Source: an uncultured Coriobacteriaceae bacterium (GTDB lineage Bacteria > Actinomycetota > Coriobacteriia > Coriobacteriales > Atopobiaceae). Taken from it: DNA of 64,000 nucleotides. The position numbers were made by a program, and so were the translations under genes. The notes below the pieces were generated by a model, which saw nothing but the letters and a program-made list of their open reading frames with translations, did no database searches and had not been told where the DNA came from. Every line of letters starts with the position of its first letter. Position 1 is the first letter of the stretch. The stretch lies in assembly GCA_902773995.1 (NCBI GenBank), contig CACYGL010000004.1, positions 1-64,000 on the forward strand, written 5' to 3'. Below are positions 1-47,885 of this stretch, piece after piece.

Positions 1-297
1 TCAGGCGCTCGCTGGGCTCGATGAGCCCCTTGGCATACAGGCAAAGCCTAGCCCTTGCAGCCTAGCGAGAACGGTACGGAAAAGCGGTACCACCCCCAAA
101 CCTAAATCTGGGCTTGACTAAACACAGGATTCCTGCCCCGCAGTGACCGGGAGTCGCCCCCACCAGCCAGAAACGATAGCCAGACAAGTCCAACAGGTGT
201 CCGAGCTACGCACGGCCGAAGGTACGGTGGACGCGTCCCCGTTGGAGAGAAAAGGATAGGCGGGCACACGTAAACGTGAGCTTTGGGGCCCAAAAAT
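1..297 (-). promoter_or_regulatory. possible T-box-like leader of a minus-strand gene lying left of the window
   Basis: No open reading frame here looks coding. Read on the minus strand, positions 97-84 give GGGGGTGGTACCGC, which matches 9 of 10 bases of the T-box core (UGGNACCGCG) found in leaders of aminoacyl-tRNA synthetase and amino-acid genes. It is followed at 28-14 by a hairpin-forming GGGCTCATCGAGCCC. A nine-base match in 64 kb could occur by chance, and I could not draw a confident stem I or specifier loop. The regulated gene would start left of position 1. The alternative is plain intergenic DNA. Confidence 0.3.
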
Positions 298-540
298 GCA
301 TCGAACTCACCTTCGTTACACAGAATCGGCGTCTCCATGCATCGAAATGGCCTTCGTTACACCCAGTTTTCGTGATGAGGTAATTAGGTTTCCTATATCT
401 TGTGATATATAAAACTTTTAACATCAATATATTGTGTGTCAAATGGCTTCATACTTGGACATTCGCCAATATTACGTGTAACGAAGGCGAGTTCGGCGCA
501 ACGAAGCCAATTCTTGTGTAACGAAGGCGAGTTCGGCGCA
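298..540. repeat. repeat family A, copy 1: 243-bp nested inverted-repeat element
   Basis: Two direct copies of a ~24-bp unit on the left (298-321 and 340-363, reading roughly GCATCGAACTCACCTTCG then TTACAC) face two inverted copies on the right (476-499 and 516-539, GTGTAACGAAGGCGAGTT then CGGCGC). Between them is an AT-rich core of ~110 bp containing ATATTGTGTGTCAAA. A second element with the same layout and almost the same length (242 bp) lies at 28088-28329. The arms would fold into a long imperfect stem. It carries no ORF with coding character. It resembles a MITE or REP-type palindromic element; I do not recognise a named family. Confidence 0.75.
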
Positions 541-7279: not shown

Positions 7280-8569
7280 ATGAAGCAACAGCGTCCATAT
7301 CCGCAGGTCATCGTCACGAGAAAGGCTGCCCGGGCGCTTGCCAGCGGACACCCTTGGGTCTTCGAGGGCGAAGTCCTGCGCATGGAGCCCGCGCCCACGG
7401 ATGGGCGCATGGCTCAGAACGGCGACGTGGTGGATGTGGTCGAGGAGAACGGCACCTGGCAGGGCGTGGGGCTTCTCTCCGAGCAGAGCAAGATTCGCGT
7501 GCGTGTGGTGAGCCGCAACGCCAACGACCGCATTAACGAGGCGTTTTGGGCACGCAAGCTTCAGTGGGCATGGGAGTATCGCAAGGCCACCATGGGCTCG
7601 CGCGCACTGCCAGGCTGCGAGCCGGACACCAACTGCTGCCGCGTGCTCTTCTCGGAGGCAGACGGGTTTCCGGGACTTGTCGTTGACCGCTACGAGGACG
7701 TGCTTGTCTCGCAGGTGGGAACCGTTGGCATGCAGCGTCTGCGCCCCACGCTCTACCCGCTGCTGCTCGACGTGCTGCGCGCAGACGGTCAGGACATCCG
7801 TGGCATCTACGAGAGAAACGACGCACCTTCCCGTCTCAAGGAGGGCCTTGCGCAAGAGAAGGGCTGGTGGGTCGAGGGCGACCGGCCTGTTCCGGAAAGC
7901 GCCCGCGTGGTTGCATGCGAGAATGGCATTGCCTACGACCTTGACCTCGAGAACAGCCAGAAGACCGGGTTCTTCCTCGATCAGAAGTACAACCGTCGCG
8001 CCGTGCGCGAGCTGGCGCGCGGCCGCCGTGTGCTTGACTGCTTCTGCCATGTGGGGCCGTTTGGCCTCAACGCCGCTGCGGGCGGCGCCGCGTTTGTGCG
8101 CGAGGTCGACGTAAGCCAGACGGCCATCGACCTTGCGCGTGAGAACGCGCACCTCAACGGCCTTGACGCAACTATGGGCTTCACCTGCGCAAACGTGCTG
8201 GAGTACCTACCTGCGCTTGTCTCGGACAAGAAGCGTCTACGCGAGGAGGGCGGGCCCTTCGACCTCATCGTCTTGGATCCCCCGGCGTTCACCAAGAGCC
8301 GTGGAACCGTCGACCATGCCGCTCACGGCTATCGTGAGATTAACGAGTGGGCCATGCGGCTCCTGCCGCGCGGCGGCTACCTTGCCACCTGCAGCTGCAG
8401 CCACTTTATGACGCGCGACCTTCTCGCCCGCGCCATTGCCGAGGCCGCACACAACGCCAACGTCCAGCTGCGTCAGATCGAGGAGCGCCAGCAGGCGCCC
8501 GACCACCCCATTCTCTGGGGCGTTCCCGAGACCCACTACCTGGACTTCTTTGTGTTCCAGGTGGTATAG
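7280..8569 (+). CDS. rlmI: class I SAM-dependent rRNA methyltransferase (RlmI-like)
   Basis: About 429 residues. An N-terminal PUA-like domain (VTRKAARALASGHPWVFEGE) is followed by a Rossmann methyltransferase domain with VLDCFCHVGPFGLNAA (SAM site) and the catalytic-type motif LDPPAFTKS. This is the architecture of RlmI, which makes 5-methylcytosine in 23S rRNA. I chose the ATG at 7280 because AGAGGG precedes it and the protein then begins at the PUA domain; the open frame extends upstream into the helicase gene without coding character. It follows the helicase by 73 bp and may be co-transcribed, giving an RNA-processing pair. Confidence 0.85.
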   Translation: MKQQRPYPQVIVTRKAARALASGHPWVFEGEVLRMEPAPTDGRMAQNGDVVDVVEENGTWQGVGLLSEQSKIRVRVVSRNANDRINEAFWARKLQWAWEYRKATMGSRALPGCEPDTNCCRVLFSEADGFPGLVVDRYEDVLVSQVGTVGMQRLRPTLYPLLLDVLRADGQDIRGIYERNDAPSRLKEGLAQEKGWWVEGDRPVPESARVVACENGIAYDLDLENSQKTGFFLDQKYNRRAVRELARGRRVLDCFCHVGPFGLNAAAGGAAFVREVDVSQTAIDLARENAHLNGLDATMGFTCANVLEYLPALVSDKKRLREEGGPFDLIVLDPPAFTKSRGTVDHAAHGYREINEWAMRLLPRGGYLATCSCSHFMTRDLLARAIAEAAHNANVQLRQIEERQQAPDHPILWGVPETHYLDFFVFQVV

Positions 8570-26489: not shown

Positions 26490-26705
26490 GCGCGCGTGCG
26501 CAACCTCCTTGGACGACGCGGGTGCAACTGCGCGCCGGTGACGGCAGTCGCGACTGTTTCCTAATTCTATAAGAATTACCCAGTTAACGCGGAGTCACGC
26601 ACGAGTCGTAACCCAATGGTTCGTATCGTCTTTATGCGTTCGCGAGGGCGCCATATGCGGCTGGTACGATGTGTGGCCCAAAGGCCGACCAGCGAAGGGA
26701 GCGCC

Positions 26706-28031
26706 GTGGCCGAAGACACCGACAGCACGCGGGATCCGCTTGACCCCATTCCCGACGTTGACTGGGCGATGGAGATGGGAGACGCCGAAGACGGACTTGG
26801 GCCCATATCGTATGACCAAGCGAGCGCCAGCGCAGAGGCGGGACATACCCGCGTCATGCCTGTTGCTGCTCCCGGGGCCCGCATGGATGGCACGCAGCCC
26901 AGCCTTTATCGGAGAGATTCTCCCAGTGCAGAGCACGGGTATGCGACAGCCAGCGAAAACGGATATGCCGGGTATACCGGGAGGCCCGATGCGCGAGCTC
27001 AGAAGCCGAGGCGCCGCCCAAAACGGGCCCGGCACGGGTTTCTGAGCTTTATCTTGTGGCTGGTGATGCTCGCATGCCTGGGGCTAATGGCAATCAGGTG
27101 CCTTCCGGCGTCGTACTCCGATGGTCGCGCGGTGCCGGAGCTTGTTTCGTTTGTGCCGGTGCTCTTTGTACCGGTGCTCGCATGCCTGGTTCTGGCTGCG
27201 CTGTGGCGACGCCGGGTTTTGCTCGTTGTGAGTGCAGCGGCTCTCGCAACCATTGCCGTCTGGCACATCGGGTACTTTGTCCCAACGTCGCGCGTGAGCT
27301 CTTCAGCGGTGACGAGCGTGCAGGCGTCGGCCTCTACCAGCGACAACGCCGCGCGCATCATGACGCTCAACACGTACAACGGAAACGCCTCAGCGGCAGA
27401 GATCGTCGCCCTGGTCAAGAGCTACAACGTTGAGGTCCTCTGCCTGGAGGAGCTTACGGATGCCGAGGTGCAGGCGCTGAGCGCGGCGGGGCTCGATGCG
27501 GTTCTGCCGTACCACGTGATTTCCGATGCGGCGTCAGAGATCAACAACGGAGGGCGCAACGGCATCTGGACGGCGGCGCCCATGTCGAATGTCTCCACCA
27601 ACCTACTCCCCATTAACACGAGCTCGATGCCAGCGGCCGATATTGTGGTGGGTGGGACAACGGTGCGCATCGTGGCGGTGCACCCCAACTCGCCCGTGCG
27701 CGGCGCTCAGAGCGAGTGGAGCCAGGGGCTTTCTGTCATCCAGTCGCTTTCTGGGTACAACCATGCCTACCTGCTGTGCGGTGACTTCAACTCGACGTGG
27801 GATCACGCGCGCTTCCGCGAGCTTCTTGGAGACACGTTTGTGGATGCCGGGGAGCAGAGCGGACAGGGGTTCCACATGACATACCCCTCAAGCAGCAAAG
27901 TTCCCTCGCTCATCGAGATCGACCACTTTGTGTATTCGAAGTCCTCTGGCATTGTGGTGAGCAACCTTGAAGCGGTGGCTGTCAGCGGAGCGGACCACCG
28001 AGCACTGATAGGAATCCTCGAAGCGTCCTAG
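26706..28031 (+). CDS. membrane-anchored endonuclease/exonuclease/phosphatase-fold protein
   Basis: About 441 residues. A long disordered cytoplasmic N-terminus (to ~115) is followed by three hydrophobic helices (~115-205) and then an EEP-fold domain facing outside, with MTLNTYNGNASAAEIV, ELTDAEVQAL (the catalytic-type Glu), VAVHPNSP, LCGDFNSTWDH and ADHRALIG at the end. This is the layout of UPF/YafD-like secreted or membrane EEP enzymes. I chose the GTG at 26706 (GAAGGGAG upstream). The substrate is unknown: DNA, phospholipid head groups or other phosphodiesters are all possible. Confidence 0.8.
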   Translation: MAEDTDSTRDPLDPIPDVDWAMEMGDAEDGLGPISYDQASASAEAGHTRVMPVAAPGARMDGTQPSLYRRDSPSAEHGYATASENGYAGYTGRPDARAQKPRRRPKRARHGFLSFILWLVMLACLGLMAIRCLPASYSDGRAVPELVSFVPVLFVPVLACLVLAALWRRRVLLVVSAAALATIAVWHIGYFVPTSRVSSSAVTSVQASASTSDNAARIMTLNTYNGNASAAEIVALVKSYNVEVLCLEELTDAEVQALSAAGLDAVLPYHVISDAASEINNGGRNGIWTAAPMSNVSTNLLPINTSSMPAADIVVGGTTVRIVAVHPNSPVRGAQSEWSQGLSVIQSLSGYNHAYLLCGDFNSTWDHARFRELLGDTFVDAGEQSGQGFHMTYPSSSKVPSLIEIDHFVYSKSSGIVVSNLEAVAVSGADHRALIGILEAS

Positions 28032-28082: not shown

Positions 28083-28087
28083 GGTTT

Positions 28088-28329
28088 GCATCGAACTCGG
28101 CTCTGTTACACAAAAATTGAGTTATTTGCGCCGAACTGCCCTACGTTACACGTAGTTTCTGGGCAACCCCAAGTAGTGATTGGGCAGTAACCACAACATA
28201 TTGTGTTTATCAAAGCATTTGCCACAATATACAGACTCTAATACCTCGCACTGTCCCAAATACACGTGTAACGAAAGGCAGTTCGGCGCACAAACTCAGG
28301 ATTTTGTGTAACGGAGCCGAGTTCGATGC
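28088..28329. repeat. repeat family A, copy 2: 242-bp nested inverted-repeat element
   Basis: Same plan as the element at 298-540: outer arms 28088-28111 and 28306-28329 pair with one mismatch in 24; inner arms (GCGCCGAACTGCCC then TACGTTACAC, and the inverse at 28264-28290) pair with about three mismatches; the segment between inner and outer arms is also roughly complementary. The ~100-bp core is AT-rich with CACAACATATTGTG and CACAATATAC. Mismatches within this copy are largely matched across its own arms, which points to pressure to keep the hairpin. The right arm ends 10 bp from the stop codon of the nuclease-fold gene at 28340. Confidence 0.8.
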
Positions 28330-28339
28330 ATCGGCGACC

Positions 28340-29314
28340 TTAGCCGAACAGCCGACGCAGGAGCATCGACCTAAGCGCTGCCTCCCGCGCGCTCAGCGGC
28401 TTTCTCCGATAGCCCAACCGCCGCTCAAGCTGCGAGGTCAACGCATTGAGCGCAACCTCATCGCTGGTAATGCCATTTGTCACAACCAGAGGTTTGTAAC
28501 CCACTGACTCAAGCGCGCTCCTTCGACGTTCGTCCTTGGTCTTCTGCTTCGAATTTAAGTGCGTAAGATCGCTGTCGTACTCAACTGTTACGCGTTTGCA
28601 TTCCCAGAGAAAATCTGGCTTCACTTGATCCTGGCCAGCAAGTTCCCTTTGCTCTCCCATCAGTTCAATGGGTTGGTTCATCTCAAAACCTCTAAGCTCA
28701 GCACCACCGCGACGCCTTGAAAGATTGAAGTACACCGCCAAAGCCGTCTCACGAGGTGAATTGGAGTTTGCGACGGCAAGTTCAAGAGCAGAGTCTGCCC
28801 GGATTGAGCCTCGAACTCCCAGCGCCTTTGAGGCACGGATATATTTCGTCAGCTCCCCGTGCGTGATCAACGGGGCAAGATCGACATCCCATCCCTTTTC
28901 CAGCTGGTCAGAGAGTCCGTAAGTGCCAAGCATTTCCATGGCAACCATCGCAAGCTCAACGTCATCCCAGATGCTTGCCAGCTGAACCAGAACCGCGGGC
29001 ATTCGGTATATGTACATCCGCTCGTCGACCCTGAATAGCCCCTCGCCAACCGCCGGCCCGGCCCATCGGTGATCCCTGATAAGCGGGCAGTTATGCCGAG
29101 CGTCTCTCTCACCAATAACGACATCCAGCGGTCCGTCGCAGCAGCAGATTTCCAGCGCCCTGCGTGCCCGCTCCGTTAACGTCAAGTTCCCCGCGCCGAA
29201 CACCACACCAGGCTCCTCCTGTGCCGCCGCGTCACGATTTACCAGCTGTGCCACTCGCGCCGACCGCCAGAAGCTAAGCGCTGACTCAAACCCAATAACC
29301 AGACGCGTACCCAT
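28340..29314 (-). CDS. Vsr/DUF559-like nuclease-fold protein (homologue 1 of 3)
   Basis: 324 residues. The N-terminus (VIGFESALSFWR) and middle part (YRMPAVLVQLASIWDDVELA, NSPRETALAVYFNL) match the layout of the protein encoded at 37217-38413. The C-terminal ~100 residues look like a Vsr/DUF559 restriction-endonuclease fold: KPDFLWECKRVTVEYDSD, then KDERRRSALESVGY and VVTNG. The candidate metal-binding acids are the Asp/Glu in those motifs. It is homologous in plan to an AbiEi-like protein at 54222. It is flanked at its 3' end by repeat A2. Function unknown: defence, a TA-like role or repeat maintenance are options. Confidence 0.7.
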   Translation of the reverse strand: MGTRLVIGFESALSFWRSARVAQLVNRDAAAQEEPGVVFGAGNLTLTERARRALEICCCDGPLDVVIGERDARHNCPLIRDHRWAGPAVGEGLFRVDERMYIYRMPAVLVQLASIWDDVELAMVAMEMLGTYGLSDQLEKGWDVDLAPLITHGELTKYIRASKALGVRGSIRADSALELAVANSNSPRETALAVYFNLSRRRGGAELRGFEMNQPIELMGEQRELAGQDQVKPDFLWECKRVTVEYDSDLTHLNSKQKTKDERRRSALESVGYKPLVVTNGITSDEVALNALTSQLERRLGYRRKPLSAREAALRSMLLRRLFG

Positions 29315-47222: not shown

Positions 47223-47885
47223 AGTTGACCCCCCAACCTGAAACGCAAACGACCAGACAGATACTCTCCGCTGTCAGAAGTCAGACAGCAATGTGCACGC
47301 TTGTCCTGAAAATGCTGCTATTTACGTATTGCAAAATTCGTGCTTGCATACAGCGGAACGAGATGGATGTATGAGGAACGATTTCCTCGTTTTCGAGGAT
47401 TCGCTTCCGTCCGCCGGCGATTCCCGCTTATCCACCGGCCAAAGCCGCCAAGTCCTTTACGGCATGTACGTATTGGCGTTTGCATGTCGCACCCCCAGCG
47501 TAGTGAGCATTCGTTGGGCATTGCGCTGCGCACAACACCCTCAATTTGCGGATGATATCGAAGCGTCAGAGATTTGAAATCATTCCAAAGGATGAGACGA
47601 GGGATGAGCGGGGCGTATGTCGACCCCGAAGGCATGATTATCTCGCTGGCCGGTGCGTACGCTGGAATCGTCTCGCCGGCGTCGAGCGCGGTCATTGAGC
47701 GCTACCTCAAAAGTGAACACGAAAATGACCGGTCATAACCAGCTCTCTGGGAAAACGCCGCCGTGCGCTTCCCGGAATTGTTTTCGTGTTCACTTTTGGA
47801 TTGGCGAAAAGGGCGTAGCAAGCGCGGCGGACGCCGAGGGCGGTGCAGGGGCCGAGGCTTTGGCCATGCGGCTGTGTCATTGGCA
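47223..47885 (+). other. gene-poor stretch upstream of the adhesin with a small ORF
   Basis: It is about 660 bp. No strong gene. A 48-codon plus-strand ORF at 47592-47738 (containing YVDPEGMIISLAGAYAGIVS) has coding-like composition but no recognised family; its last codons run into repeat D. It may be a remnant of a longer gene. The adhesin promoter should lie in 47223-47350. Confidence 0.35.
47709..47797. repeat. repeat D: 89-bp element with perfect 17-bp terminal inverted repeats
   Basis: Ends AAAAGTGAACACGAAAA and TTTTCGTGTTCACTTTT are perfect inverted repeats around a ~55-bp middle containing ATGACCGGTCAT (a perfect 12-bp dyad). Single copy here. Its size and end structure resemble family B. 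Confidence 0.75.

What the first reader, a model, noticed from the sequence alone, without database searches (positions are those of the whole stretch)
298..540. Repeat family A: two ~242-bp nested inverted-repeat elements, 28 kb apart
Elements at 298-540 (243 bp) and 28088-28329 (242 bp) share the same design: two ~24-bp arm units on the left, an AT-rich core, two inverted units on the right. In the second copy mismatches are matched across its own arms, suggesting selection for the folded form. I know no named family with this layout.
Basis: seen in the sequence. Interest (0 to 1): 0.65.

Follow-up and report, generated by a model that had tools for sequence, protein, structure and literature searches.

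The report
Four-site inverted-repeat elements, fixed length
One genus of gut bacteria (Tractidigestivibacter and close Olsenella relatives) carries dozens of short non-coding DNA elements between genes, each with four copies of a 24-base site at fixed spacing around a variable centre; the sites and spacing are kept while the rest changes, so something still reads them, but what it is remains unknown.

Summary
Window 297-540 and 28087-28330 are two of 17 complete "family A" elements in this genome. Each has four copies of TGTAACG-N6-AGTTCG-NNGC(A), at offsets 40/137-141/40, total 240-244 bp in all 59 elements examined. All 8 genomes of the genus carry them. None of 387 other genomes of the order does, except one likely contaminated contig. 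A second, sister family B (unit CCGTCCGATAG-N4-TTTTTATGCA; 40/145-146/40, 250-251 bp in 17/17 lineages) has the same plan. A and B replace each other at the same intergenic sites in different species. At orthologous sites the units diverge far less (91% identity) than core (72%) or flank (75%), so the sites are held by selection after insertion. Facing arms match each other more than chance (p<=0.003), but only within units, not in spacers or core, so a long RNA hairpin is not supported. No inversion was seen in any ortholog pair. No autonomous partner, clean target duplication or Rfam match was found, and the two RAYT loci examined are flanked by other repeats. Best reading: REPIN/MITE-like elements that now act as four-site protein-binding platforms. 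The protein and function are unknown.

The parts
297..540 (.). Family A element 1 (E01), 244 bp with terminal T/A
297..320 (-). E01 outer-left unit (LO)
   Evidence: 0 mismatches to the unit pattern
338..361 (-). E01 inner-left unit (LI)
   Evidence: 1 mismatch
362..476 (.). E01 core: variable sequence, fixed length; TACTT motif at 452-456
477..500 (+). E01 inner-right unit (RI)
   Evidence: 0 mismatches
517..540 (+). E01 outer-right unit (RO)
   Evidence: 0 mismatches
28087..28330 (.). Family A element 2 (E02), between the 26616-28031 (+) and 28340-29314 (-) genes
28087..28110 (-). E02 outer-left unit
   Evidence: 1 mismatch
28127..28150 (-). E02 inner-left unit
   Evidence: 0 mismatches
28151..28266 (.). 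E02 core; AAGTAG at 28171-28176 and TACCT at 28242-28246 are the facing third motifs
28267..28290 (+). E02 inner-right unit
   Evidence: 0 mismatches
28307..28330 (+). E02 outer-right unit
   Evidence: 0 mismatches

Best explanation
These are non-coding intergenic elements of two sister families (A and B), spread in the past like REPIN/MITE elements and now long resident. Each works as one four-site, two-fold symmetric protein-binding platform. Each 24-25-bp unit, preceded by an A-tract, is a site for a genus-specific DNA-binding protein (A and B being two specificity classes). Two sites per arm, 40 bp apart, face two inverted sites across a core whose length matters but whose sequence largely does not, so bound arms can be brought together with the core as a loop. 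Shown here: repeats, geometry, restriction to one genus, purifying selection on units and length at fixed loci, A/B replacement at the same intergenic sites, the whole element as the unit kept. Inferred: the protein, the loop, and any host function (chromosome organisation or insulation between genes would fit).
For: Geometry 40/137-141/40 in 32 divergent A lineages and 40/145-146/40 in 17/17 B lineages although cores are near-saturated. In ortholog pairs of 75-90% element identity, units are 90.8% identical versus spacer 72.9%, core 72.3%, flank 75.4%; indels per 100 nt are 0.16 in units versus 2.33 in flanks. Exact units occur inside four-site elements; isolated ones are decayed or hybrid remnants. 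A and B units share 13 of 25 positions in register (p=0.002 by shuffling) and a similar spacer motif. A and B occupy the same intergenic site in different species at the E02, E07 and E09 loci. Core orientation follows the flanks in orthologs, so elements are inherited vertically.
Against: No binding protein was identified and no host phenotype is known. Spacings are not whole helical turns (40 bp is about 3.8 turns). Copy number varies from 3-5 to about 25 per genome and several loci lack any element in sister species, which is odd for an essential function. Facing-arm matching is not needed for simple protein binding.
Confidence: 0.5

Rival explanations
1. Still-mobile selfish elements like REPINs or MITEs, moved in trans by a transposase that binds the four units; unit and length conservation reflects the need to be mobilised.
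For: Terminal inverted repeats beginning TGCA and ending TGCA, size below 500 bp, intergenic, copy number expanded in different lineages (A: 17 in G000, 1 in G004; B: about 15 in G004, 4 in G000). REPINs also have conserved ends, a spacer conserved in length more than sequence, and compensatory changes (PMC3116915).
Against: No near-identical copies in any genome: best within-genome identity 0.57-0.72. No element with these paired ends and a gene inside was seen in eight genomes. No clear target duplication. Y1/RAYT genes are present, but the type examined is flanked by other palindromic repeats, and G004 has no PF01797 match while holding about 15 B elements. Conservation persists after insertion.
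Confidence: 0.3
2. A structured RNA: the element is transcribed and folds into two stacked stems, for example as a bidirectional terminator or processing signal.
For: Very stable predicted folds; LO-RO and LI-RI matching.
Against: Spacers and core do not pair within elements; no excess of G-U-compatible mismatches; the same unit sequence is required in tandem on one arm; a 115-nt loop of fixed length but free sequence is unlike an RNA; no Rfam family; no bias to convergent genes (25 tandem, 17 divergent, 14 convergent by rough ORF calling).
Confidence: 0.08
3. Site-specific recombination sites (conserved arms around a variable 6-8-bp centre matched between inverted partners) that invert the element.
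For: The A unit is an imperfect palindrome TGTAACGAA-N6-TTCGATGCA with 7 of 9 half-site matches; centres match between inverted partners.
Against: Core and arm orientation equals flank orientation in every unambiguous ortholog pair. Partner centres are usually not identical (about 66% match).
Confidence: 0.04
4. Neutral relics of an old burst of a miniature transposon.
For: Half elements, solo units and hybrid junctions exist.
Against: Units evolve several times more slowly than core and flank at the same loci, and total length is held within 4 bp.
Confidence: 0.05

Closest known systems
REPINs (paired REP sequences forming hairpins) with RAYT transposases
   Same: Intergenic, inverted conserved ends, spacer conserved in length rather than sequence, compensatory changes, long persistence in a lineage, singlets as remnants (PMC3116915).
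   Different: Four units of 24-25 bp instead of two REPs; 240-251 bp instead of about 100; tens rather than hundreds of copies; A/B units not found at the RAYT loci examined, and B is abundant in G004 where no PF01797 match was found.
Bacterial MITEs
   Same: Under 500 bp, no genes, terminal inverted repeats (PMC10969869).
   Different: No autonomous parent, no clear target duplication, no near-identical copies, and length held within 4 bp where MITE families such as QMITE1 range from 39 to 400 bp (PMC10969869).
Transposon ends with several transposase sites per end (Tn7, IS21, Tn402, Mu; own knowledge)
   Same: Repeated about 22-bp sites in each end, opposite orientation at the two ends, TG...CA termini.
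   Different: Both ends sit within 250 bp with no transposase between or elsewhere with the same ends.
Integron attC and tyrosine-recombinase core sites (own knowledge)
   Same: Paired inverted boxes around a variable centre; pairing limited to the boxes.
   Different: No inversion observed; partner centres not identical; no linked recombinase or cassettes found.

Membership tests
REPIN/RAYT | Inverted conserved ends with a spacer kept for length | tested here: met
REPIN/RAYT | Cognate RAYT gene associated with the same repeats | tested here: not met
   A/B units absent around RAYT loci L264-L268; the loci examined in detail have other palindromes (CGGGATT..CCCCGGCAA, TGAGACAAAGGGAC); G004 has no PF01797 match but about 15 B elements
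REPIN/RAYT | GTAG- or CGTC-type tag at the foot of a palindrome | tested here: inconclusive
   A unit lacks both; B unit contains CGTC but is not palindromic
MITE | Terminal inverted repeats, under 500 bp, non-coding | tested here: met
MITE | Target site duplication | tested here: inconclusive
   None visible; element-less sites differ across the whole intergenic region; duplications fade with age
MITE | Autonomous transposon with the same ends | tested here: not met
   No such element seen in 8 genus genomes
MITE | Copies nearly identical from recent spread | tested here: not met
   Best within-genome identity 0.57-0.72
Site-specific inversion system | Both orientations of the segment found | tested here: not met
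Known structured RNA | Match to an Rfam family | tested here: not met
   Only a tRNA in the window

The most novel reading that the evidence does not exclude
A new kind of chromosomal nucleoprotein site: a four-site, two-fold symmetric element of fixed length, in two sister specificity classes that replace each other at the same intergenic slots, read by an unknown genus-specific protein with a host function.
Probability: 0.35. Interest if true: 0.75.

Novelty: new variant of a known kind. Interest (0 to 1): 0.57.

Why it matters
Few dispersed bacterial repeats combine free sequence with length held within 4 bp and clear selection on sites after insertion. That combination says a protein complex probably still reads them, and the two families swapping at shared sites give a natural experiment in changed binding specificity. 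The sequences are ready-made bait for finding the protein and for testing whether REPIN-like repeats can become chromosome-organising elements.

Tried and rejected
Structured RNA as a whole (no spacer or core pairing). Invertible switch. RAYT/REPIN membership. Spread by plasmid or phage (no hits; the 14 IMG/VR hits are lone units consistent with chance). Terminator between convergent genes (mixed contexts). In-place conversion of A into B at a shared locus: same-locus A and B cores are no more alike than random A-B pairs. Tyrosine recombinases as the partner: present in all genera, no genus-specific pattern. The same layout with other units in sister genera: not found in about 220 kb from five genomes, mostly G009 and G012. 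First family-B search failed because I mis-set the spacing by one base, corrected.

Full report
OBSERVATION. The two elements are present as described: 297-540 and 28087-28330 when the conserved terminal T and A are included. Each holds four copies of TGTAACG-N6-AGTTCG-NNGC, two inverted on the left and two direct on the right. They are far beyond chance (11 matches in the window against 1.46 expected) and fold strongly as single strands.

FAMILY A. The window is the start of contig 4 of a 2.2-Mb, 92-contig genome. The same pattern gives 33 exact units there, none for the reversed control, and 17 complete elements. All seven other genomes of the genus carry the family, with 1 to 13 elements each. 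Record titles name Tractidigestivibacter scatoligenes, T. montrealensis, "Jeddahella massiliensis" OL-1 and Olsenella strains. In a search of 395 genomes of the order, the tandem-unit pattern occurs in 8 of 8 genomes of the genus and in none of 387 others, except one MAG contig. That contig's element is identical to the Jeddahella one, so contamination is likely. No match was found in Rfam (window scan), plasmids or phages; viral-contig hits are lone units.

GEOMETRY. All 59 complete A elements have offsets of about 40, 137-141 and 40 bp and total 240-244 bp. Cores are near-saturated between elements. Conserved core positions are few: TACTT about 25 bp and an A-tract about 8 bp before the inner unit, and an ATATTGT-like motif near the centre in many. 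The unit is an imperfect palindrome, TGTAACGAA-N6-TTCGATGCA.

FAMILY B. At the E02 locus of G002 and G005 the A element is replaced by a different element next to a leftover A outer unit. This revealed a second family with unit CCGTCCGATAG-N4-TTTTTATGCA, the same 40-bp period and 250-251 bp total in 17 of 17 lineages. It too is confined to the genus. A and B units match at 13 of 25 positions in register (shuffle p=0.002) and share a spacer motif, so they are probably sister families. A scan that assumed no unit sequence found only A and B in 400 kb of G002.

SLOT SHARING. At the E09 locus the orthologous intergenic site holds A in G000, B in five other species, half a B in G006, and a lone A unit in G007 with the same central bases as the outer units of E09. 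At the E07 locus it holds A in G000 and G003 and B in five others. Same-locus A and B cores are not unusually alike, so this is replacement, not conversion of one into the other. Whether it reflects insertion hot spots or functional slots is open; I estimate under one such coincidence by chance, but the estimate depends on the assumed number of intergenic regions.

SELECTION. For ortholog pairs at 75-90% element identity, unit identity is 90.8% versus spacer 72.9%, core 72.3% and the adjacent 80-bp flanks 75.4%. Several pairs diverge in the core with no gap at all while flanks stay high. These pairs are not independent of each other, so I give no p-value. Core orientation follows the flanks even at about 60% core identity, so most are true vertical orthologs. 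Constraint acting after insertion argues against neutral relics.

ARM MATCHING. Over 32 lineages clustered at 82% identity, the variable unit bases match between LO and RO (p=0.0004) and between LI and RI (p=0.0028), but not between tandem units; spacers and cores do not match (first seen). Shuffling does not remove shared ancestry. In family B the four units resemble each other more generally. Template switching between inverted repeats homogenises arms without selection (PMC8604942; PMC8794818), so this signal alone does not prove that a folded form is used.

MECHANISM. Site conservation, fixed length with free sequence, two-fold symmetry and absence of working single units fit a multi-site protein-DNA complex. 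The nearest described objects are REPINs, whose spacer is also conserved for length and hairpin-forming ability (PMC3116915). RAYT-type genes exist in most of the genus, but no A/B units lie at the loci examined, and G004 has no match while carrying about 15 B elements. MITE features are only partly met (PMC10969869). I therefore do not file the elements under either family, though they may have spread in a similar way.

LIMITS. Gene contexts are from rough ORF calling. The partner protein, transcription and function are untested.

Noticed in passing
L151 and L193 (G002 contig 2, about 460769-461058): A family B element with five units: one unit plus spacer is perfectly duplicated in the right arm, keeping the 40-bp register.
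   Followed up: partly
L268:1042-1114 and 1916-1988; L266:1367-1426 and 2220-2300: RAYT-like Y1 transposase genes flanked by palindromic repeats CGGGATTNAACTCCCCGGCAAYGG; another RAYT locus (L265) is flanked by TGAGACAAAGGGACWGTCCCTTTGTCTCA. Apparent cognate REPs in this genus.
   Followed up: partly
L038, about 100-150 bp left of element E10: A hairpin-rich stretch (GCCCTCCGGCGCCAATCTGGCGCCGGAGGGC) has dozens of similar copies across the genus genomes; it looks like a repeated terminator-type palindrome.
   Followed up: no
window 1-97: The contig starts inside a sequence with six or more 79-95% copies in G004, probably why the assembly breaks here.
   Followed up: no
L115 (G046, MAG UMB00006): A contig assigned to another family of the order carries an A element identical to that of Jeddahella, with matching flanks; likely contamination of the MAG.
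   Followed up: partly
L250 (G007 contig 25): At the E08 locus this species has an ATPase-like gene (about 1.3 kb) between the flanking genes instead of the element.
   Followed up: no
L243, about 7880-8100 (G004): At the E07 locus G004 has neither A nor B but several direct repeats of GTGCGTACGCACRACC, perhaps another repeat family.
   Followed up: no
window 47708-47798: Perfect 18-bp inverted repeat CAAAAGTGAACACGAAAA / TTTTCGTGTTCACTTTTG, 55 nt apart, next to a second 24-bp imperfect inverted pair at 47418-47670.
   Followed up: no
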